A stretch of 64,000 bases of DNA, taken from positions 1 to 64,000 of the forward strand of contig MKWN01000026.1 in the NCBI GenBank assembly GCA_001899775.1, in the 5' to 3' direction. Under the pieces are notes generated by a model. The model worked only from the letters and a program-made list of their open reading frames with translations, was not told the DNA's origin and did not search any database. The translations under genes and the position numbers were made by a program. This stretch comes from Thiobacillus sp. 65-29 (GTDB lineage Bacteria > Pseudomonadota > Gammaproteobacteria > Burkholderiales > Thiobacillaceae). Shown one piece after another: positions 3,936 through 14,735 of the stretch. Position 1 is the stretch's first letter. Each line of letters opens with the position of its first letter.

Positions 3936-4991
3936 ATGACCGAGAATTTCTCTGCCCTCATCGACACGGTGCAAAAGAACTGCACCATCGCCGACGCGCG
4001 TCACGCGCGCGACATGACGATGTGCACGTTTCTGCTGGAAATGCGTGAGTATTACCGTTGGGAAATGGAGATTCCCTACGGTGCACGCCTGCCCCGCGAC
4101 GAACTCGGCGACTGGCTGAACGCGCGCGAAAGCCTCTGGGACACCGTGGAGGAAGAAAATTTCCTGAAGCTACCGCTCGGCGACGCGGGCATCGATCCGT
4201 TCGAGACGGATGCAATCAACCGCGCGTTGCTGCCCCACGGGCTGGTATACAGCAGCGGGCTGGGGCAATTCCGCAAGCCGCATTTCGTGCTGGCCGAACT
4301 GAAGCGCGCGGAGGTGCGCGAGGGCGTCGAGGTGCTGGTGGCGGGCTGCGAGTACGCGCGCGATCTCATTGCGCCGCCGGCGACGCTGCGCGACGGCGCG
4401 ATCTTCCTGCGCCTCGACGCGGTGCGGCGCCTGCTGTGGAACAAGTACGAGGAATGGCAGTGGAAGGAGCGCGACAGCGCGCTCGGCCGCGCCTTTACGC
4501 ATTACGGCTTCGAGCACGATATCGAGCGCGGGCTCGACCGCATGGCGGAGGCCGAGAGCGAAGCCATGATCCTGCACGAACTCGGCGAAGCGCGTGCCGG
4601 AATGTTGCTGGGCAACGACTGGCGGACGATGCTGGGGCAGCTGGGCTCCCGCCACGCGGAGTTGCTGGTGCGCGCGGTGCGCGACCTGCTCGCCGACTGC
4701 CTGGTGACGCTGCCCACGCTGCTCGAACGCGACGCGGCCGGTTCCCTGCATTTCTACCTCGCCAACCTCACCGGGCTGCGGCGCGCGCTGTTCCCCGCGC
4801 TGATGAATGCCTACGGCGCCTGGATCGACACCGGCCGGCGCGAACCCCTGGCGGCGTTGGCCCGGCAGGGGGCTGCGCACTGGCTGGAGGTCGGCCAGCG
4901 CCTGCTGGCGATCTGGCGCCAGGATGCGGCGCTCGCCGATGCACGGCTGAAGGCACTGGCGACCGGTGATCTCGGCGGGCTCCGGCTGTAG
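3936..4991 (+). CDS. conserved hypothetical protein (resembles the Sfum_1244 family)
   Basis: This is a soluble protein of 351 residues. It starts MTENFSALIDTVQKNC and has conserved-looking blocks RDMTMCTFLLEMREYYRWE and LGDWLNARESLWD near the N terminus. The rest is mixed alpha/beta to helical. I see no signal peptide or membrane segment. From memory the N-terminal block resembles the uncharacterised family annotated Sfum_1244 in sulfur- and iron-metabolising proteobacteria; I could not check this. A terminator precedes the gene (3869-3902) and another follows it (5005-5042), so it is a single-gene transcription unit. No function can be assigned. Confidence 0.7.
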   Translation: MTENFSALIDTVQKNCTIADARHARDMTMCTFLLEMREYYRWEMEIPYGARLPRDELGDWLNARESLWDTVEEENFLKLPLGDAGIDPFETDAINRALLPHGLVYSSGLGQFRKPHFVLAELKRAEVREGVEVLVAGCEYARDLIAPPATLRDGAIFLRLDAVRRLLWNKYEEWQWKERDSALGRAFTHYGFEHDIERGLDRMAEAESEAMILHELGEARAGMLLGNDWRTMLGQLGSRHAELLVRAVRDLLADCLVTLPTLLERDAAGSLHFYLANLTGLRRALFPALMNAYGAWIDTGRREPLAALARQGAAHWLEVGQRLLAIWRQDAALADARLKALATGDLGGLRL

Positions 4992-5052: not shown

Positions 5053-8000
5053 CTACGCGGACACCATCTCCTTCTGGCCGAGCTGCTCGGCGATGTGGTC
5101 GAGCAGTTGCTGTTCCTGATAGGGCTTGCCCAGGTAGACGTCGACGCCGATCTCGAGCGCGTGGTTGCGGTGCTTGTCCGCCGTGCGCGAGGTGATCATG
5201 ATGATCGGCACCGTTTTCAGGCGCGCGTCGCTGCGCATCACGCGTGCCAGTTCGAAGCCGTCCATGCGCGGCATCTCGACGTCGAGCAGCACGATTTCGG
5301 GAACGAGATCGCGCATCTTCTCCAGCGCGTCGACGCCGTCCTTCGCACTGTCGACGCGGAAGCCCTCGCGGGTGAGCAGGCGCGTGGTGATCTTGCGCAC
5401 GGTGAGCGAATCGTCGACTACCAGCACCAATGGCGGTTGCAGCGCGCTGCTGACTTCGACCGACTCCGCAGGCGCGGCCTGTTCCAGTGCGACGCGCGGC
5501 TGGCTGGCCCAGCGCAGCGCCAGCGGCACGGGATTGAGGATGAGAATGACGCGTCCATCACCGCGCACGGTGGCACCCGCCACCCCGGTGATGCGGGCCA
5601 TCTGCGGGCCAATGTTCTTGACCACGATTTCGCGCGTGCCCTCGATGGCATCGACCAGCACCGCGGCGTGGCTGGCGCCGCTGGCGAGCAGGACCACGGA
5701 GTTGTAACGTTGCACCTCGTGTACCGCCTCGGTATCGCCAAGCAGGTGGGGCAGGTAGGCGAACGGGTAGCGCATGCCGCGCCAGCTCACCTCGCCCGCG
5801 GCCATCGCCTGCTCCAGCTCGCCGGGTTTCAGTTCCAGCACCTGCTGCACCAGCGGGGCGGGCAGGGCGTAGTCGTGCTTCGCCGCCTGCACCATCACCG
5901 CCTGCGTCATCGCAAGCGTGAGCGGCAGGTAGATGCTGAAGGTCGTGCCCTGGCCCGGCGCGGAGCCGATGTCGATGCGCCCGCCGAGTGCGGAGATTTC
6001 GCTCTTCACCACGTCCATGCCGACACCACGGCCGGCGACCTGGGTGACGCTCTCGGCGGTGGAGAAGCCGGCGGCAAAGATCATCTGTGCGAGCAGGCTC
6101 TCGGTCACCTCGACCGCGGGTGGCAGCAGGCCGCTGGCCTCCGCCTTCTCGCGAATGCGCGCGTAGTTGAGGCCGGCGCCGTCGTCCCTGACGGTGATGA
6201 GCATTTCGTTGCCGCTCTGGCGCGCGGAGAGGACGATTTCGCCGAACTCCGCCTTGCCGGCTGCACGGCGCACGTCGGGCGTCTCGACGCCGTGCGCGAG
6301 TGCGTTGCGCAGCAGGTGCTCGATCGGTGCGGTGACCTTTTCCAGCACCGAGCGGTCGATTTCGAGCTCGCCACCCTGGATGTCGAGCTGGGCGCGCTTG
6401 CCGACATCGCGCGCGGTCTGGCGCACGGTGCGATAGAGGCGTTCGGCCACCGAGTACAGCGGCACCATGCGCACGCGCAGGAGGTCCTGTTGCAGTTCGC
6501 GGTTGAGGCGGGTCTGCTGGATCAGCGCAGCGTCGGCCTCGCCCAGGCGGGCGAGCAGGATGTGCTGCACGGTGGAAATATCGTTGACGCTTTCGGCAAG
6601 GAAGCGGGTGACTTCCTGGAAGCGGGTGAAGCGGTCGAATTCCAGCGGGTCGAACTGCTCGGCCGCCCCCTGCGCCTGGAAAGTGGCCTGCATCTGCGAC
6701 TCGGCCTGGATCTCGACCTCGCGGATGTGTCCGCGCAGGCGCACCAGCGCTTCCGAGAGTTCGTGCACGTGGCGCTTGAAGGCGAATACTTCGCTTTCGA
6801 TGCGCGAGCGCGCGATCGCCACCTCGCCGGCCTGGTTGACCATGCGGTCGACCCAGTCGGCGCGCACACGCAGGGTCAGGGCAGAGCTGTCGCGGCTGAC
6901 CGGCTGCGTCGGTGCACGGGGCGTATCGGTTGCGGGCAGCGCTGCCGCGACGCTTGACTGCGGCGCGGCCACCTCGGGCAGGACCGGTTCGACCGGCGCG
7001 GCAAGGGGTGTATCCGGTTCGTCGGCGACCGGTGCCAGATCGCCCTGGCGCAGGCGTTCCACCGCGTCGATCAGGCGGTCATACTGCGATTCCAGCGTAT
7101 CGAACATGTGCGCGTCGGCGGCAAGCTGGCCCTCCGCGACGGCGATGACGCGCGTTTCCATCACGTGCGTGAGTTCGCCCAGGCGCATCGCGCCGACCAT
7201 GCGTGCGCTGCCCTTGACGGTGTGCAGCGTACGCTGCAGGGCATTGCGCGCGGCCGCATCGTCCGGTGCCGCCTTCCATTCGCGCAGCTGCGCGCTGCCA
7301 TCGGGAACGAGTGTCTCGGCCTCTTCGAGAAACACCGGCAGGAGCTGTTCGTCGATTTCGTCGGCGATTTCGCGACGCTCGAACACGGGCGCCGGGGCGG
7401 CAGGGCGCACCTCGGGGACGAAGGCACTCACGTCCGGCATGACGGGTTCGGCCGCGACCGGGACGGCCGATGCGTCGGCGTCGGCGTCGGCGTCGGCGTC
7501 CGCAACCACTGCCACGGCCTCCGCCGGCATCTCGGCCAAAGCGGCGGGTGCAGCCTCCGCGAGCAGCGTCGCGGGCTCACCCGCCTGCTCGTCTTCCAGC
7601 TCGCCGAGCGCGACGATGAGATCGGTGGCCGGTTCGGGCAATCTGGAATGGCCGACGGCATCGACCATCTCCTGCACGCGCGCCACCGTGTCCTGCACCA
7701 GCGGCAGGTGGGCGGCGGGCAGGGGAACATGGGCAAAACGGTTCCAGTAGCGTTCGAGCGCGAGCGACAGGTCGGCCAGCGGCACGATGCCGGCGGTGCC
7801 GGCGATACCGGCCAGGGTGTGCACCGCACGGCGTGCGTGTTCGGCAATCGTGCTGTGGGCGACGGCGGCGTGGCGTTCGGCTTCTTCGTGCAGCACCGCC
7901 AGCCGCTGCTGCGCCTCGGCCATGAAGATGTCGTACAGGCCCGCCGACAGGCAGACGGTGCCGATGCAGATTTCGTCCGCTGGCGCAGGCACTTCGTCTA

Positions 8001-10884
8001 CGGGTGACGCGGGCGGCACGGCGACCTCGATGATCGCGCCGAATTGCGGCGCGGCGGCAGCGGGGTCCTCGACCACCGCCGTGCTCGGCTCGACTTCCGC
8101 GACGTGCACCGCAGCGGGCGTCTCCGCCCGGACCGCTTCGGCAGGCATCGACTCGGCCAACGCTTCCGGCGCATGGATCTCGGGCTCGATTTCGGCGGGC
8201 CGCTGCGGCTGCGCCACCTCGATGATCGCCACGTATTCGATGACGGGTGCGGGCGCAGGCGCAGCAAACTCTTCGACCAGCGGCTCGGCGGGTGCCTGCG
8301 CCACGGGCTGGGTACAGCTCGCCAGCGGGCGCCCTTCCGCCACGCACGCCACGGCGGCAAGCAGGGCCGGTACCGGCAACGTCGCCGGCGTGTTGCTGCG
8401 CAGCGCATCGACCCAGTCGTGGAACAGGGCGCGCGCCATACCGATCAGTTCGAGCAGATCGGCAGACGCCGGCAGCGTTTCCGCCAGGCGCGCGTTCATC
8501 AGTTGCTCCAGCGACCACGCGACTTCGCCCAGCTCGTTCAGTCCGACCATGCGGCCGCTGCCCTTGAGCGTATGGAAGCCGCGACGGATGGTCGTAAGGA
8601 TGTTCTGGTCATCGGGATTTTCGCGACTTGCCTCGACGGCTTCACCCTGCGTGACGAGCACCTCGTCCGCTTCCTCGAGAAAGACCTCGAGCAATTCGGG
8701 CTCGGCGTCTTCCGGCACGGTGACAAGCAGGCCCGGTGCGGCCGGGGATTCTGCGAGCACGGTCGCAACGGCTTCGGCGGGCGCATCGTTCGCGGCGAGC
8801 ACGATTTCCTCGACCTCGGCGCCGGCAGGCAGCGTCTCCGCGACATCCTCGACGACACCGGTATCCGACGCAACGGGGGCAATGTCCACGGACGGCGCCG
8901 TCTGCGGGCGCACCGGCAGGGTGGCGCCGGTCAGTGCGGTGACGAGGATATCCTGCCCGCCACCCGGGCAGTCGAGCTCGCGGCAGGCATCGAGGAGAGC
9001 ACGCGACTGCTGCTTGAGCTGAAGATCGTCGATCAGCTCGGCGTCGCGATTCAGCTCGCCGAGGGTGTCAAGAAATTTTTTTTTTGCGGCCTCGCCGGGC
9101 GCGTCGTTCCAACCGAGATAGGCGTCGCGCACGTCCGACTTGCGTGCGGGAATGCCGGCTTCGACGGTTTCGCCGAGAGGATGCGCCGGCTCGTCCGCGT
9201 CGGCGAGTCCGAACTCGATCAGTACCGGACGCAGCATGTTGCCCGCGTCACCGCGGCCCGCACAATATGACTCGATGTACAGACCCAGGCTGGAGAAGGC
9301 GTCGGCCAGGCGCTGGCGCGTGGCATCGTCGGGTTCGCCTTCGCCGATGAAGGGCACGGCGGTGGCGGTGGCGGCTTCCAGCAGGCTGGCAGCGGCGGGC
9401 AATTCGAGCATGGTGAGCGCGCCCTGCGCCTGCTGTGCAAGGGCCGGCAGACTGGCAAGTGCTTCGCGGTCGCCGCTGTCGCGGAAGAAGGCATCGAGCG
9501 CTTCCTCCATCTGACGCAGGTTCTGCCCGACTTCCTGCGCCATGTGCAGCAGCATGTCGCGCTCGGCCTCGCGCTGGGTCGAGGTTTCGATCAGGCTGGC
9601 AGGCATTTCGCGCCCCTCGACCAGCGCGTGCAGGCGTGCCTCCTGGTTTGCCGTGCGTGTCGCGAAGTCATCGTGCAGCACGTCTTCCTTCTCGACGGCA
9701 TTCTGGATGAACAACAGTGTCGAGGCGACTTCGAGGTCGATCTGCTCGCGCGCCGCGCCTTCGCGTCCGGTGGTGGCCAAGGCCGCGGCCGCGAGCGCCT
9801 GCAGCAAAGGCATCAGTCCGCTGTGTTCGAGCATCTGCGCCTGCGGGTGCATGCGCGCGAGCTGCGCCTGGAATGCGTCGAGCTGCGCGGCATCGCCGTC
9901 GACATAGGCGTGCCAGTGATCGCGTGCCGCTTTCAGGCCGTTCTGCAGCGCATCGAGCACCGGGCGCATGCGCGCCATGGTTTCCGGGTCGAGCAGGCCG
10001 CGGCCGGGGAGGTAGCGATCGAGCCCGAAGGTCGCACGCACTTCCGCCGCGCAGCCTTCGGTCGGTTTGCTCTTGGCGACGAAGAACAGGGCGTCGCGCA
10101 GCAGGCGCTCGGCCACCTGCGGCGAGCCTTCGATCAGACGGCGCATCTGCAGGTCGATCCGCGCCAGCAGTTGCTTGACGTGGAAATCCGCCTCGACCCC
10201 ACGGGCGATCAGGCTGTCGACGAAACCCACGCAGGCCCACCAGAAAGTATGGGCGGCCTGCGAGGGCGCGACGCTCTCGATTTGCGCCAGCGCATCGCGC
10301 ATCTGGCCGAGGCCCTGCTCCGCGCCGGCATTGCGCAGGAAGGCCAGCAGGCCGCGCTGGAACTGCGCACGCAGGCGCTTGACGTGCGCGGACAGTTCTT
10401 CCGGAGAGAGGCCACTCGCGGCCGCGTCATTGGCACCGGCGCGGGTACGCAGGTCGGGAAAAAACAATTCACCCTCGAACACCCGCTCGGCACCCTGCAG
10501 TTCGCGCAGTCGCTTGTACAGGGGAAACAGCGCGAGTTCGCCGCTGCCGCGGCCATCGGCGAGGTCCTTGACCCAGCGCTGCAATCCCTCGATGGCATTG
10601 CGCAGAGCGCGCATCAGCTCGTCGCTGGCGGGCTGGCGGTTTTCGTCGATGTCGGCCAGGCTGGTTTCGAGTGCGCCTGCGAGCGTCGCAGCGCCTTCCA
10701 GGCCGACCATGCGCAGCACGCCGGCGACCTGGTGCGCATCGTCGCGCGCCAGACGCATGGCGTTGGTCAGGTCGGCGTCGACGCTGAAGGCCTGCACGCG
10801 CCCGAGGGCGGCCTGCAGCGCGGCGTCGATTTCGCCGCGCACCCAGTTGAGGGGGCCGGTGTCGTAATCAAGTAAGGCGCTCAT
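5053..10884 (-). CDS. chpA: ChpA-type hybrid chemotaxis histidine kinase of the type IV pilus system
   Basis: The 1943-residue product is a CheA-like kinase for the Pil-Chp pathway that controls twitching motility. The N-terminal ~600 residues form the ChpA/FimL-like region with a degenerate Hpt-like segment (HQVAGVLRMVG). Three canonical Hpt modules follow: HTLKGSGRMVG near 770, HTLAGIAGTAG near 1021 and HTVKGSARMVG near 1220. Next come a CheA dimerisation region and an HATPase domain (N-box LLRNALAHGVE near 1525, DDGAGL, GRGVGMDVVKSE near 1618). A CheW-like domain and a C-terminal receiver (VVDDSLTVRK near 1820, phosphoacceptor in LLDVEMP near 1866, K in YLGKPY) complete it. Pseudomonas ChpA has more Hpt modules. 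Low-complexity Ala/Pro/Glu linkers separate the domains. The gene is last in pilG-H-I-J-chpA. It contains an A10 run at codons 600-603 and a hexanucleotide repeat encoding (Asp-Ala)n. Confidence 0.95.
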   Translation of the reverse strand: MSALLDYDTGPLNWVRGEIDAALQAALGRVQAFSVDADLTNAMRLARDDAHQVAGVLRMVGLEGAATLAGALETSLADIDENRQPASDELMRALRNAIEGLQRWVKDLADGRGSGELALFPLYKRLRELQGAERVFEGELFFPDLRTRAGANDAAASGLSPEELSAHVKRLRAQFQRGLLAFLRNAGAEQGLGQMRDALAQIESVAPSQAAHTFWWACVGFVDSLIARGVEADFHVKQLLARIDLQMRRLIEGSPQVAERLLRDALFFVAKSKPTEGCAAEVRATFGLDRYLPGRGLLDPETMARMRPVLDALQNGLKAARDHWHAYVDGDAAQLDAFQAQLARMHPQAQMLEHSGLMPLLQALAAAALATTGREGAAREQIDLEVASTLLFIQNAVEKEDVLHDDFATRTANQEARLHALVEGREMPASLIETSTQREAERDMLLHMAQEVGQNLRQMEEALDAFFRDSGDREALASLPALAQQAQGALTMLELPAAASLLEAATATAVPFIGEGEPDDATRQRLADAFSSLGLYIESYCAGRGDAGNMLRPVLIEFGLADADEPAHPLGETVEAGIPARKSDVRDAYLGWNDAPGEAAKKKFLDTLGELNRDAELIDDLQLKQQSRALLDACRELDCPGGGQDILVTALTGATLPVRPQTAPSVDIAPVASDTGVVEDVAETLPAGAEVEEIVLAANDAPAEAVATVLAESPAAPGLLVTVPEDAEPELLEVFLEEADEVLVTQGEAVEASRENPDDQNILTTIRRGFHTLKGSGRMVGLNELGEVAWSLEQLMNARLAETLPASADLLELIGMARALFHDWVDALRSNTPATLPVPALLAAVACVAEGRPLASCTQPVAQAPAEPLVEEFAAPAPAPVIEYVAIIEVAQPQRPAEIEPEIHAPEALAESMPAEAVRAETPAAVHVAEVEPSTAVVEDPAAAAPQFGAIIEVAVPPASPVDEVPAPADEICIGTVCLSAGLYDIFMAEAQQRLAVLHEEAERHAAVAHSTIAEHARRAVHTLAGIAGTAGIVPLADLSLALERYWNRFAHVPLPAAHLPLVQDTVARVQEMVDAVGHSRLPEPATDLIVALGELEDEQAGEPATLLAEAAPAALAEMPAEAVAVVADADADADADASAVPVAAEPVMPDVSAFVPEVRPAAPAPVFERREIADEIDEQLLPVFLEEAETLVPDGSAQLREWKAAPDDAAARNALQRTLHTVKGSARMVGAMRLGELTHVMETRVIAVAEGQLAADAHMFDTLESQYDRLIDAVERLRQGDLAPVADEPDTPLAAPVEPVLPEVAAPQSSVAAALPATDTPRAPTQPVSRDSSALTLRVRADWVDRMVNQAGEVAIARSRIESEVFAFKRHVHELSEALVRLRGHIREVEIQAESQMQATFQAQGAAEQFDPLEFDRFTRFQEVTRFLAESVNDISTVQHILLARLGEADAALIQQTRLNRELQQDLLRVRMVPLYSVAERLYRTVRQTARDVGKRAQLDIQGGELEIDRSVLEKVTAPIEHLLRNALAHGVETPDVRRAAGKAEFGEIVLSARQSGNEMLITVRDDGAGLNYARIREKAEASGLLPPAVEVTESLLAQMIFAAGFSTAESVTQVAGRGVGMDVVKSEISALGGRIDIGSAPGQGTTFSIYLPLTLAMTQAVMVQAAKHDYALPAPLVQQVLELKPGELEQAMAAGEVSWRGMRYPFAYLPHLLGDTEAVHEVQRYNSVVLLASGASHAAVLVDAIEGTREIVVKNIGPQMARITGVAGATVRGDGRVILILNPVPLALRWASQPRVALEQAAPAESVEVSSALQPPLVLVVDDSLTVRKITTRLLTREGFRVDSAKDGVDALEKMRDLVPEIVLLDVEMPRMDGFELARVMRSDARLKTVPIIMITSRTADKHRNHALEIGVDVYLGKPYQEQQLLDHIAEQLGQKEMVSA
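7472..7501. repeat. hexanucleotide tandem repeat inside chpA
   Basis: About five tandem copies of CGTCGG (the last imperfect) encode an Asp-Ala run in the linker between the second and third Hpt modules. A six-base unit keeps the frame, so copy-number change would only lengthen or shorten the linker. Confidence 0.85.
9037..9085 (-). other. candidate slippage / -1 frameshift cassette in chpA
   Basis: On the coding strand a run of ten A (9085 to 9076, codons GCA AAA AAA AAA) is followed 12 nt later by a perfect 7-bp inverted repeat (CTCGGCG/CGCCGAG, 9063-9057 and 9043-9037, 13-nt loop). In the -1 frame the sequence reads ATT TCT TGA, so translation stops two codons after the run. Losing one A also leads to TGA within about nine codons. 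The layout resembles the A-AAA-AAG site of dnaX. The sequence features are certain; that slippage occurs is a hypothesis. Confidence 0.45.
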
Positions 10885-10938: not shown

Positions 10939-13050
10939 TCAGGCCAGCTTGAAGCCGGAGACCGAACTCTTCAGATCCTGCGCCAGTTGCTTGATGCCCT
11001 GGATCGAGTCGGCGGTCTGCTGCGTACCCGCACTGGTCTGCGCAGAAATCGACTTGATGTCCTGCATGGTCTCGGCCACCTTGGCGGTCGACTCCGCCTG
11101 GCTGTGCGTGGCATTGGAAATGTCCGCAATGAGGCTGGCGAGCTTCTTCGACACCGTGCCGATCTCGGCCAGCGTCTGGCCCGCGGCGTCGGACAGCTTG
11201 GCATTCTCGACCACACCCTGGGTCGAAACCTCCATCGCCGCCACGGTGTCGTGGGTGTCGGACTGAATGGTTTTGACGATCGCCGCGATCTGCTTGGTCG
11301 CGTCGGCGGAGCGTTCCGCCAGCCGCTGCACTTCCTCGGCCACCACCGAGAAACCGCGCCCGGCTTCACCCGCGGAGGCGGCCTGGATGGCGGCGTTGAG
11401 CGCCAGCACGTTGGTCTGTTCGGTAATGTCGGAAATCAGTTCCACGATCTCGCCGATCTCCTGCGAGGATTCGCCGAGGCGCTTGATTCGCTTCGAGGTC
11501 TCCTGGATCTGCTCGCGCAGGGTGTTCATGCCAGAGATGGCGTTTGACACCGCCTGCTGACCCTTCTCGGCGGCGGCCAGCGACTGCTCCGCCACACGGG
11601 CGGATTCGGCCGCGTTGCCCGACACCTGCTGCACCGATTGCGCGAGATTGACCACCGCGGCCGACGTCTCCTCGATTTCCGCAGTCTGGCGGCGCGCCGC
11701 CTGTTGCAGCGCGTCGGACACCTGGCTCGCCTGGATGGCGGCGCTGTCCATGTGCTCGGTGGCGTTGTTGATCCCGCGCACCAGGCTGCGCAGCTCTTCC
11801 ACCGTGTAGTTGATCGAGTCGGCCACCGCGCCGGTGATGTCCTCCGTCACGCTGGCGTTGATGGTGAGGTTGCCTTCGGCGAGCTCGCCGAGTTCGTCCA
11901 TCAGGCGCAGGATCGCCTCCTGGTTGCGGGCGTTCTCTTCCTCACTCTTGCGGGCGCGTGACTTGGTCTCGTTGATGGTGATCGAACCCAGCATGATCAG
12001 CGAACCGACCGCCAGCACGCCGAACAGGGCTGCCAGCAGGTAGCTCATGCCGCCGACGTTCCGGTAGTCCTGCGAGAGCTTGTCGGTGTCCGCCATGAGC
12101 GCGTCGCTGCCGGCGAACAGGTTGCTCGCCGCCATTTTGGATTGCAGCAACGCCTGGGTATTGGCGAGCACGGACCCCACCGTCTCCACCATGTCGGCCA
12201 TGTTGGTGCCCAGATCCTCGAGCGTCAGCAGGCTGTTCTCGTTCGTCGCCGCCGTGCCTTCCATCAGGGCCTGCACCGTATCGCGGAAGGCGGTGGTGTC
12301 CTTCTCCAGTTGCAGCACGACCTCGGGGTCGATCAATTCGGACGACAGGAGCAGGTTCGCGTTCTTCGGCAGGCGCTGACTCAACATGACGAGATGGTTG
12401 GCACGCGTGACGTCGCGCACGCCGGCGCCCGAGTCGGCCAGCTGGCTGGCCAGCTGCTCGGCGACCTCCTGCAGATCGGTACTGAGGGCGTTGATGCGCT
12501 TCACGCTCTCGCCCATCGCCACCAGGTTCTTCTGCTGCGAGAGGATCAGGCCGATCTGCGGTTCGAACTTCTTCCAGTGGCCGGTGACGCTCTGCAGGGT
12601 GTCGCGCGCGGCGCCTCCGGATGCCGGGACCTCGTCGTCACCCTCGGTCAGGCCCTTGAGGGTCGTTTCGAATTCCGCCTTGCCGTCGGCAAGTTTCTTG
12701 AACGCCACGGCGTTGCCCAGAACGGACTGCTGGGCCGTCAATGGCAGGCGCTGCGACAGCACCTTGAGCTCGCCGGCACGGCCTTCGTAGCCGGCGCGAT
12801 TGTCCAGTTGCACGAGGCTGTAGATCGTGAAACCCGCCGCAAGCAGCAGCGAGGTGACCAGCGCGCCGCCGGCATAGAGATACTGCTTCTCGACCGGCAG
12901 ATGACCGATGACCGGCGCCTTGCCCGGCTCCTTGTCGGCCAGCTTGCGAACAGTCTGCATGATGAGGGTGGTGTGGTCACTGCCCACCGCCTTGCCCTTG
13001 CCGGTTATACGGCCCGCCAGCCCCTTCAGCCCATTCATCGTGATTGCCAT
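10939..13050 (-). CDS. pilJ: PilJ, methyl-accepting chemoreceptor of the type IV pilus system
   Basis: The protein is about 703 residues. After a cytoplasmic N-terminal stretch it has a first membrane helix near residues 57-80 ([20 protein letters not shown]). A large periplasmic domain with two PilJ-type four-helix modules follows, then a second membrane helix near 335-355, a HAMP-like linker and a long coiled-coil signalling domain. The signalling tip [15 protein letters not shown] near 542 contacts the CheW and CheA homologues encoded next to it. An ATG at 13056 is also in frame, but the GAGG ribosome-binding site is only 2 nt from it and 8 nt from the ATG at 13050, so I chose 13050. The gene lies between pilI and chpA in the minus-strand operon. 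Confidence 0.95.
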
Positions 13051-13129
13051 GTTCATCGCCTCAATCCCTGTTCCATTTGGCGCGCAGGCGCCCTGTGCTC
13101 AAAGTAAAGATCCGTCCGTTGGTGTCCCG

Positions 13130-13639
13130 CTACGCCTCGACCATGAGAAAACCGGCATGGCCGAGCAACTGGCCGAAATCCATGTCGTGCCACTCGGTGC
13201 CCGCGTCGTCGGCATAGCGGTGCGCCACCCACGGCTGTGCCGCTCCGCCTTCGCAGGGGCGGTACTGGCCGATGTTCTTCAGGCCCAGCGTGCCGCCCAC
13301 CAGCAGGGCTGCATTGACGCCGAACCCGTGGTGCGGGATCAGCAGGCGGCAACTGGCTTGCTCGGGTGTCGCGCCCTGCCCCAGAAAATCGGCAAAATCG
13401 CTCACCGCGAAGAGGTTGCCGCGGATGTTCGTCATGCCGCGGAACCAGCGCCGCGCACCCGGCACCTTCACGATGGGCGGGACCGGCAGCACTTCCTCGG
13501 TGTCGGCCAGCCCGACCAGCCAGTTCGTCGCACCCACGCGAAACCCCAGCCGCGAGCCCGCCGTGTCGCGGCTGGCGGCGGCCTGCAACTGCTGGGACAG
13601 CGCGGTCTGGAACTCGCGCAGGTTGAACTTCTTGGCCAT
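13130..13639 (-). CDS. pilI: PilI, CheW-like adaptor
   Basis: This 169-residue protein contains one CheW domain, with GFRVGATNWLVGLADTEEVLPVP near the N terminus and the MTNIRGNLFAVSDFADFLG loop typical of PilI/CheW. It couples the receptor PilJ to the kinase ChpA. The gene starts 10 bp after pilH ends and lies 79 bp upstream of pilJ, consistent with cotranscription. No enzymatic residues are expected in this family. Confidence 0.93.
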   Translation of the reverse strand: MAKKFNLREFQTALSQQLQAAASRDTAGSRLGFRVGATNWLVGLADTEEVLPVPPIVKVPGARRWFRGMTNIRGNLFAVSDFADFLGQGATPEQASCRLLIPHHGFGVNAALLVGGTLGLKNIGQYRPCEGGAAQPWVAHRYADDAGTEWHDMDFGQLLGHAGFLMVEA

Positions 13640-13649
13640 GTACGTCCGC

Positions 13650-14015
13650 TCAGCCCAGCGCCTTGATCTGCGAGAGCAGGTCGTCCGGCTTGATCGGCTT
13701 GACCAGGTAGGCCTTGGCGCCCTGGCGCATGCCCCACACCTTGTCGGTTTCCTGTCCCTTGGTGGTGCACATGATGACCGGGATGTGCTTGGTGGCGTCT
13801 TCCTTGGTGATCATGCGGGTCGCCTGATAGCCGTTCATGCCGGGCATGACGACGTCCATGACGATGAGATCGGGCAGGGTCTGCCTGGCCTGCGCCACGG
13901 CTTCCTCGCCGCTTTCGGCCATGCTGACCAGATAGCCGTTCTTGACCAGCAGTTCGGACAGGAAGAAACGCTCGGTGGGAGAGTCGTCCACGACCAGGAT
14001 GCGGCTGATTGCCAT
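13650..14015 (-). CDS. pilH: PilH, single-domain response regulator
   Basis: The protein is a 121-residue CheY-like receiver with no output domain. The acidic pocket D10-D11, phosphoacceptor D54 (LIVMDVVMPGMNGY) and K106 (YLVKPI) are all intact, so it can accept phosphate from ChpA. PilH is thought to act on pilus retraction or as a phosphate sink opposing PilG. It lies 28 bp downstream of pilG and 10 bp upstream of pilI in the same operon. Its assignment over PilG rests on position and on the ISRILVVDDSPTERF start typical of PilH. Confidence 0.93.
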   Translation of the reverse strand: MAISRILVVDDSPTERFFLSELLVKNGYLVSMAESGEEAVAQARQTLPDLIVMDVVMPGMNGYQATRMITKEDATKHIPVIMCTTKGQETDKVWGMRQGAKAYLVKPIKPDDLLSQIKALG

Positions 14016-14043
14016 GATGATGTGCTCCTTGAAGAAAGATCAG

Positions 14044-14436
14044 TCAGACCCGGGTGGCCGCGTGCTCCCGCACCGCCGACAGCAGGGTGTCCTTGGTGAA
14101 GGGCTTGGTGAGATATTCGTCCGAGCCGACCATGCGCCCGCGCGCGCGGTCGAACAGGCCGTCCTTGGAGGACAGCATGATGACCGGCGTGGTCCGGTAT
14201 TTGGCATTGCGCTTGATGAGCGAACAGGTCTGATAGCCATCCAGGCGCGGCATCATGATGTCGACGAACACCACGTCCGGTTCATGGTCGGTGATCTTGG
14301 ACAGCGCATCGAAGCCGTCCTGGGCCAGAATGACCTCGCAGCCCACCTGATTCAGGAAGATTTCCGCGCTGCGGCGAATGGTGTTGCTGTCGTCAATCAC
14401 CATCACCTTCACACCTTTGAGTGCCTCGTTGTCCAC
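14044..14436 (-). CDS. pilG: PilG, single-domain response regulator
   Basis: This is a CheY-like receiver of 130 residues, first gene of the pil-chp operon. Phosphorylation residues D15-D16, D59 (VVFVDIMMPRLDGY) and K111 (YLTKPF) are present. PilG homologues promote pilus extension and, in Pseudomonas, raise cAMP through CyaB. I chose the GTG at 14436 because a GGTGGAG site lies 8 nt upstream and the product then begins VDNEALKGVKVMVIDDS, matching the family; a longer frame to 14478 would add a non-homologous tail. Confidence 0.93.
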   Translation of the reverse strand: MDNEALKGVKVMVIDDSNTIRRSAEIFLNQVGCEVILAQDGFDALSKITDHEPDVVFVDIMMPRLDGYQTCSLIKRNAKYRTTPVIMLSSKDGLFDRARGRMVGSDEYLTKPFTKDTLLSAVREHAATRV

Positions 14437-14735
14437 GCTGTTTCTCCACCAATACCGTCGGCGAATGGCGCCCGCCATCCGACCCGCGTGCTTAGCATTA
14501 CGGCAACGCCTGCGGGTTCTTTAGCGTCAGGCTCGCGACGCGAAACCTCGCCGCCCTTGCCCGTTTGCGGGCCCGGTGGGTTGCCTGAACACCCTCTCAG
14601 CGCCGGAAAGAGCAAAACGCGCGTGACAAAGGCGTCGTTTCAAGCCCTGGGGCGCAAATCGCCACCAACGGGGAAACCCCTGAGGCGGAAAAGGCGCAGC
14701 CGTGGCGCGCCTTTTCCGTCGCTCAACGGCGAGCC
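14437..14735. other. gene-free spacer upstream of pilG
   Basis: The spacer holds the presumed pilG promoter region, although I cannot point to a convincing -35/-10 pair. It also has a short hairpin (GGGGAAACCCC near 14670) and the longer hairpin at 14686-14718. No coding sequence or RNA gene is recognisable. Confidence 0.5.
14686..14718 (-). terminator. hairpin downstream of the secreted-protein gene
   Basis: A perfect 11-bp inverted repeat (GGAAAAGGCGC / GCGCCTTTTCC, 9-nt loop) begins 17 bp after the stop codon of the minus-strand gene ending at 14736. It has no clean U-run after the stem, so it could be a weak terminator or an mRNA-end stabiliser. Confidence 0.55.

What the first reader, a model, noticed from the sequence alone, without database searches (positions are those of the whole stretch)
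9037..9085. dnaX-like slippage cassette in chpA that would release a stand-alone FimL-like protein
Seen: ten consecutive A residues (codons 600-603, GCA AAA AAA AAA) in a gene of very high GC. In the -1 frame the next codons are ATT TCT TGA, so a slip gives a product of about 605 residues. Twelve nt after the run there is a perfect 7-bp inverted repeat. Known: dnaX makes its short subunit with an A-rich slip site, a downstream hairpin and an immediate stop in the -1 frame; FimL of Pseudomonas is a free homologue of the ChpA N-terminal region. Inferred: the truncated ChpA would contain only the region before the first canonical Hpt module, so one gene could supply both the kinase and a FimL-like regulator. 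Alternatives are transcriptional slippage, phase variation by run-length change, or a sequencing error.
Basis: partly seen in the sequence, partly recalled or inferred. Interest (0 to 1): 0.72.

Follow-up and report, generated by a model that had tools for sequence, protein, structure and literature searches.

The report
Conserved frameshift site splitting pilus-signalling kinase
A run of ten adenines inside a large kinase gene that controls bacterial surface pili is kept, together with a stop signal in the shifted reading frame, in its relatives, so the gene very probably makes two proteins: the full kinase and a short front piece that some other bacteria encode as a separate gene.

Summary
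The cassette NCA AAA AAA AA(A/G), with a -1-frame TGA two codons on, is kept in 54 of 54 genomes of the genus (Thiobacillus) that have chpA, including three whose protein has diverged directly after it. Of 1740 chpA alignment columns exactly one has a -1-frame stop in every row: this one. Lys601-603 are AAA in an AAG-preferring gene; Leu605 is the rare CTT. Sequencing error and phase variation are effectively excluded.

A second family (14 of 17 genomes) and three further relatives have a slip site at the aligned place, in some shortened to the in-phase dnaX heptamer A AAA AAG. In another gammaproteobacterial family (18 of 19 genomes) the arrangement is mirrored: the short protein is in frame and the kinase lies in the -1 frame.

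I conclude that chpA makes a ~605-residue FimL-like short form by programmed -1 slippage, probably mainly ribosomal, with RNA-polymerase slippage possibly adding at A9-A10. Corrections: the hairpin is not conserved, and the short form keeps one Hpt domain with its histidine. Expression and function are untested.

The parts
5053..10884 (-). chpA, 1943 codons: Hpt modules, HATPase_c, CheW, receiver
   Evidence: ORF, Pfam
9076..9085 (-). slip run A10 (third base of codon 600 plus codons 601-603); holds the in-phase heptamer A AAA AAA twice
   Evidence: kept in 54 of 54 genus genomes with chpA, as A10 in 52 and A9G in 2
9068..9070 (-). -1-frame stop TGA two codons after the run
   Evidence: the only invariant -1-stop column among 1740 columns of 52 rows
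9068..10884 (-). coding extent of the predicted 605-residue short form, stop included
   Evidence: inferred from frame; matches FimL-like stand-alone ORFs over nearly their whole length
10573..10815 (-). Hpt domain, residues 24-104, inside the short form; His51
   Evidence: Pfam 31.8 bits, cut-off 24.6; His51 invariant in 16 of 16 rows of A1
8395..8697 (-). best-scoring Hpt stretch, residues 730-830, after the slip site
9037..9063 (-). 7-bp inverted repeat (arms 9057-9063 and 9037-9043); probably incidental
   Evidence: at least 6 of 7 pairs in 4 of 54; z -1.35
10939..14478 (-). upstream genes of the cluster: two receiver proteins (14044-14478, 13650-14015; pilG and pilH by order), a CheW protein (13130-13639; pilI), PilJ (10939-13056)
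   Evidence: Pfam, ORFs; the names pilG, pilH and pilI are recalled from the P. aeruginosa order, PilJ is a Pfam match

Best explanation
chpA carries a programmed -1 slip site that makes two proteins from one gene. Synthesis that stays in frame gives the 1943-residue ChpA kinase. A fraction slips back one base on the A run and stops two codons later, releasing residues 1-603 plus two more as a free FimL-like protein. Shown: the run, its third-base A's and the -1 stop are under strong selection at the nucleotide level in Thiobacillus; related lineages keep a slip site at the aligned place; an unrelated family has the mirrored arrangement. Inferred: that slippage happens; that it is mainly ribosomal, because variants as short as A6G keep the in-phase heptamer A AAA AAG; that RNA-polymerase slippage may add to it where the run is A9-A10. 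Inferred with less certainty: that the short product acts like FimL, as an adaptor between the Chp system and the pilus machinery, and that the slip rate sets its ratio to the kinase.
For: 54 of 54 genus genomes with chpA keep run and -1 TGA (56 searched). Lys601 and Lys602 AAA in 52 of 52 rows, Lys603 in 50 of 52, gene-wide 611 of 1669; Leu605 CTT in 48 of 48 Leu rows, gene-wide 663 of 10,985, the least likely codon choice of 960 columns. Codon 600 is GCA, ACA or TCA (24, 24, 6 of 54), always ending in A; one invariant -1-stop column of 1740. f34: 14 of 17, with A7G to A10; L113-L115: 3 of 3, A6G; the runs of eight A or fewer all end in an in-phase AAG. None of the rows shown outside these lineages has Lys-Lys-Lys at the aligned place. 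Mirrored family f107: 18 of 19. In-phase A AAA AA words outside the region: 31 in 104,943 codons of 130 loci. One tRNA-Lys, UUU, found among 37 tRNA matches. The site lies in a low-confidence linker after the last predicted helical bundle.
Against: No expression data. No conserved hairpin or Shine-Dalgarno-like element. Within Thiobacillus the run is never below nine A and the base before the lysine codons is fixed, more than a ribosomal heptamer needs, which points to RNA-polymerase slippage there. The tRNA list is incomplete (no Trp or Ile tRNA was found), so a second tRNA-Lys is not excluded. Same-family genus f1g3 and three of 17 f34 genomes lack the site, so it is not indispensable. His51 is kept in Thiobacillus, unlike FimL.
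Confidence: 0.8

Rival explanations
1. The slip is made by RNA polymerase alone: mRNAs with more or fewer A are made and ordinary translation of them ends at nearby stops, as in Thermus thermophilus dnaX. The short protein is the same.
For: A10 in 52 and A9G in 2 of 54 genomes; the free third base of codon 600 always A. A +1-frame stop also lies near (after 7 codons in the window). The review passages describe efficient slippage on runs of nine (PMC5009743, passages).
Against: Short variants at the aligned place: A6G in L113-L115, A7G and A8G in 5 of 14 f34 carriers, A6G or A7 in 5 of 18 in f107, each in the phase a ribosome needs.
Confidence: 0.3
2. The slip happens, but the short protein is a by-product; the site serves to lower the amount of full kinase.
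For: A truncating site always lowers the full product; no function of the short form is shown.
Against: The break lies in a linker after the last predicted bundle, at the border where FimL ends, and a mirrored family keeps the short form as the in-frame product.
Confidence: 0.15
3. The lysines are needed by the protein and the codons follow by accident.
For: Lys-Lys-Lys is present in 54 of 54 genus rows.
Against: Codon choice at 600-603 and 605, and the -1 stop, are fixed although synonymous sites just downstream drift. Rows outside these lineages have other residues there. Three genomes with diverged downstream protein keep run and stop.
Confidence: 0.02
4. Sequencing error or phase variation by change of run length.
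For: Long homopolymers are prone to both in general (recalled).
Against: 54 of 54 assemblies keep a frame-preserving run; strains T. denitrificans RG and T. thioparus DSM 505 are among the named loci.
Confidence: 0.01

Closest known systems
E. coli dnaX -1 ribosomal frameshift (tau and gamma)
   Same: In-phase A AAA AA(A/G), -1 stop directly after, N-terminal short form; the reversed arrangement, as in f107, is described for dnaX of a few bacteria (PMC5009743, passages).
   Different: Different gene; no conserved downstream stem or upstream Shine-Dalgarno-like element; in Thiobacillus a longer run.
Thermus thermophilus dnaX transcriptional slippage
   Same: Nine or more A in a single ORF, with stops near in the other frames (PMC5009743, passages).
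   Different: Related lineages have runs of 6-8 A in ribosomal phase.
E. coli copA -1 frameshift releasing a free N-terminal domain
   Same: A slip frees an N-terminal domain that other bacteria encode as a separate gene (PMC5009743, passages).
   Different: Copper pump and chaperone; the product there is about 70 residues.
FimL of Pseudomonas and Acinetobacter
   Same: Homologous to the N-terminal 563 residues of P. aeruginosa ChpA (PMC3019171, passages); the FimL-like ORFs found here match the short form over nearly their whole length.
   Different: FimL is a separate gene with glutamine at both putative acceptor sites; here the region is made from chpA and keeps His51.

Membership tests
Programmed -1 ribosomal frameshift site | in-phase slippery heptamer X XXY YYZ | tested here: met
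   A AAA AAA in the window; in-phase A AAA AA(A/G) in 54 of 54 genus genomes
Programmed -1 ribosomal frameshift site | short -1 extension ending at a stop, conserved beyond protein need | tested here: met
   TGA in 54 of 54; the one invariant -1-stop column of 1740
Programmed -1 ribosomal frameshift site | frameshifted product made in cells | not testable with these tools
   no proteomics or ribosome profiling at hand
E. coli dnaX three-part cassette | downstream stem-loop stimulator | tested here: not met
   at least 6 of 7 pairs in 4 of 54; mean z of the downstream 60 nt -1.26
E. coli dnaX three-part cassette | upstream Shine-Dalgarno-like stimulator | tested here: not met
   SD-like 4-mer in 13 of 54
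E. coli dnaX three-part cassette | sole tRNA-Lys with anticodon UUU | tested here: inconclusive
   one tRNA-Lys, UUU, among 37 matches, but the list lacks Trp and Ile tRNAs
Transcriptional slippage of T. thermophilus dnaX type | run of nine or more A | tested here: met
   54 of 54 in the genus; not met in 5 of 14 f34 carriers, 3 of 3 of L113-L115 and 5 of 18 in f107
Transcriptional slippage of T. thermophilus dnaX type | mRNAs of varying run length | not testable with these tools
   needs cDNA reads
FimL | homologous to the N-terminal region of ChpA over its whole length | tested here: met
   L230 and L232 match profile positions 11-555 and 4-561; definition from PMC3019171 passages
FimL | acceptor histidine replaced | tested here: not met
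   His51 in 16 of 16 Thiobacillus rows; replaced in L230, L232 and 16 of 16 f107 rows aligned
FimL | separate gene | tested here: not met
   no separate copy found in this genome

The most novel reading that the evidence does not exclude
Type IV pilus chemosensory systems have evolved programmed frameshifting more than once at the border between the FimL-like region and the kinase part of ChpA, in both polarities: the short form by slipping (Thiobacillus, f34, L113-L115) and the kinase by slipping (f107). The slip rate, not two promoters, sets the ratio of a free FimL-like adaptor to the kinase, and a separate fimL gene is the gene-level equivalent. In the mirrored family the short form has lost the acceptor histidine, as FimL has.
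Probability: 0.5. Interest if true: 0.9.

Novelty: new variant of a known kind. Interest (0 to 1): 0.82.

Why it matters
Well-supported programmed frameshifts in bacterial chromosomal genes are few (dnaX, copA and cso2 appear in the passages read; prfB is recalled). This one sits in a chemosensory histidine kinase and would make a free regulator that other bacteria keep as a separate gene, so it ties fimL to an isoform of its parent. It occurs in both polarities, which gives natural pairs for asking what the short form does. Automatic annotation could call the f107 chpA two genes or a pseudogene, and a chpA knock-out in Thiobacillus would remove two proteins at once.

Tried and rejected
Hairpin as stimulator: tested on 54 sequences, rejected as a conserved part. 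Shine-Dalgarno-like element: 13 of 54, rejected as general.

Restart at an ATG overlapping the -1 TGA: TGATG occurs in many genus rows, but where I looked that ATG frame ends at once (for example ATG CCC TGA). By eye, not counted.

dnaX of this genome as a positive control: the longest A run on the coding strand of its locus is six; I did not analyse it further.

[quoted passage not shown] the gene context of the other two was not settled.

Other lineages: in-region A AAA AA words in 2 of 64 class-level and 7 of 66 order-level loci (4 of the 7 are f34), about what the background rate gives apart from f34. L138 (A7, -1 TGA after one codon), L288 (A9C) and L291 are left open.

Short ORFs not counted for the case: L235 (frame change inside a repeat), ORFs at contig ends (among them L132/L186, L184 and G004's), L166 and L364 (not followed), L305 (interrupted chpA, described only).

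Structure: AlphaFold on 17 rows gave pLDDT 74 and pTM 0.36, so the domain arrangement is unsure. Foldseek matches to CheA P1 domains have probability 1.00 but E of 0.2 or more.

Literature: no report of frameshifting in chpA or fimL in the searches (listings seen), nor for the terms looked up in PMC5009743 (first 300,000 of 475,107 characters held) and PMC3711429 (main text). One paper that I recall as relevant (10.1093/molbev/msr155) is not held, and supplements could not be searched, so earlier notice in print is not excluded.
Full report
What is there. On the minus strand a 1943-codon ORF (5053-10884) has the domains of ChpA: four Hpt stretches, HATPase_c, CheW and a receiver. Upstream lie PilJ, a CheW protein and two receiver proteins, so this is a pil-chp cluster. 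Codons 600-606 read GCA AAA AAA AAA TTT CTT GAC. After a -1 slip the reading is ATT TCT TGA, a 605-residue product. Only four places of the genome have nine A or more, and only this one has ten.

More than chance. The genus search gave chpA in 54 of 56 genomes (G001 and G041 had no match). I read the site in all 54: NCA AAA AAA AA(A/G), A10 in 52 and A9G in 2, with a -1-frame TGA two codons after the run in 54 of 54. Three genomes (L059, L060, L061) have different or shortened sequence directly after the run and still keep run and stop. The genus is Thiobacillus by inference: 31 of the 51 named loci at 71 percent identity or more bear that name, the rest broader or other names. In 52 aligned chpA rows, which overlap the same species, Lys601 and Lys602 are AAA in 52 of 52 and Lys603 in 50 of 52, against 611 of 1669 Lys codons overall; Leu605 is CTT in 48 of 48 Leu rows, against 663 of 10,985, the least likely codon choice of 960 scored columns. 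Codon 600 is GCA, ACA or TCA (24, 24 and 6 of 54). Of 1740 columns one has a -1 stop in every row, this one; the mean is 2.2 percent. Synonymous sites just downstream vary. The constraint is on the run and the -1 stop. The rows are related, so these counts are not independent events.

No stimulator. The 7-bp stem keeps at least 6 of 7 pairs in 4 of 54, the mean folding z of the downstream 60 nt is -1.26, and an SD-like 4-mer lies upstream in 13 of 54.

Other carriers. In the order, 100 of 200 genomes matched; I scanned 66 of these loci besides the f34 set. Family f34 has chpA matches in 17 of 18 genomes and a slip site at the aligned place in 14: A10 in five, A9G in three, A9C in one, A8G in one, A7G in four, with the -1 stop within 3 codons of the heptamer, or 6 in two. 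The three without are G088, G260 and G257; the first two read Lys-Gln-Lys there. Three named but unclassified relatives, L113-L115 (50-53 percent identical), have GCA AAA AAG CTT GAA with a -1 TGA one codon on. The rows shown outside these lineages have no Lys-Lys-Lys there. In a tree of 61 N-terminal regions the carriers group with the non-carrier genus f1g3 (ultrafast bootstrap 91, SH-aLRT 95, not starred) and the label needs three changes, so one old gain with losses is possible, not shown.

Background. Outside the region, in-phase A AAA AA words number 31 in 104,943 codons of 130 loci; inside it they occur in 2 of 64 class-level and 7 of 66 order-level loci, 4 of them f34. The cassette is a trait of certain lineages, not of chpA in general.

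The mirrored family. A class-wide search (78 of 140 genomes matched) led to family f107, where 19 of 40 genomes matched, each in an ORF of 597-650 codons. In 18 of 19 an in-phase A AAA AA(A/G) lies 15-30 codons before the end of that ORF (A10G in eight, A9G in four, A10 in one, A7 in one, A6G in four), and the -1 frame is open for 220 codons or more, to the edge of the DNA read in 17. Elsewhere in these ORFs such words number 8 in 9225 codons. In G323 the -1 frame is a 1169-codon ORF. In five of the 18 the -1 frame opens at the slip itself. Among the first six possible starts listed per locus, one with an SD-like 4-mer occurs in 5 of 18 loci, so separate initiation of the kinase is not excluded. 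G429 (L257) is the exception: no in-phase site, -1 frame of 42 codons. So the short form is in frame there and the kinase needs the slip, or its own start. The review describes the same reversal for dnaX (PMC5009743, passages).

The short product. It matches stand-alone FimL-like ORFs nearly from end to end (L230, 582 codons, E 2.9e-53; L232, 559 codons, E 2.8e-37, both against profile A2). FimL is published as homologous to the N-terminal 563 residues of ChpA with glutamine at both putative acceptor sites (PMC3019171, passages) and as an interactor of FimV that recruits PilG (PMC9596432, passages). Against the finding, residues 24-104 score as Hpt above Pfam's cut-off and His51 is present in 16 of 16 Thiobacillus rows. 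In the wider profile it is His in 22 of 24, with Tyr in L175 and Asn in L189, an f34 carrier. In 16 of 16 f107 rows aligned (of 18 with a site) and in L230 and L232 it is not His. In G292 the region is a 563-codon ORF, 360 bases before the kinase ORF. The AlphaFold model (pLDDT 74, pTM 0.36) shows helices to residue 557 and a last helix at 574-592, with confidence under 50 at 568-583 and 588-600.

Mechanism. What the sites share is an in-phase A AAA AA heptamer, and the runs of eight A or fewer in f34 and L113-L115 all end in AAG in that phase. This favours ribosomal slippage as the common mechanism. One tRNA-Lys gene, UUU, was found among 37 tRNA matches, as in E. coli, where the review gives the sole tRNA-Lys as a reason for slipperiness; the list lacks Trp and Ile tRNAs, so this is weak. 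In Thiobacillus the run is never below nine and the free base before it is fixed, which fits an added part for RNA polymerase. Shown: selection on run and stop. Inferred: slippage, its main agent, and FimL-like action.

Known or new. The mechanism class is known; the gene, the product and the two polarities in a chemosensory kinase were not found in the searches listed under Tried and rejected, which do not exclude earlier notice.

Noticed in passing
L171 and L347 (G112), L349 (G453): chpA, profile position about 866-876: In two high-GC genomes of genus g56 (GC3 about 0.9) chpA holds an in-phase run of nine T with a -1 TGA two codons on: another possible slip site at a different place; seen in 2 of 30 loci of that family.
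   Followed up: partly
L234 (G292): chpA appears as a 563-codon FimL-like ORF and, 360 bases later, a separate kinase ORF.
   Followed up: partly
window 5614-5637 (ChpA residues 1750-1757): The lowest stretch of synonymous variation in chpA, slightly lower than the slip region; Glu1752 is GAA in 42 of 44 rows. Cause unknown.
   Followed up: no
L031 (G000:C14:5500-12500): A second chemotaxis cluster in which CheA lies in two frames (143 and 625 codons) and a CheW match is split beside a stretch of N.
   Followed up: partly
[quoted passage not shown]
   Followed up: no
L138 (G106), L288 (G366): Single chpA loci with A7 and A9C and a -1 TGA within 1 and 6 codons; chance or further slip sites.
   Followed up: no
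window 3936-4991 (+): A gene next to chpA, on the other strand, matches the two domains of DUF6866.
   Followed up: no
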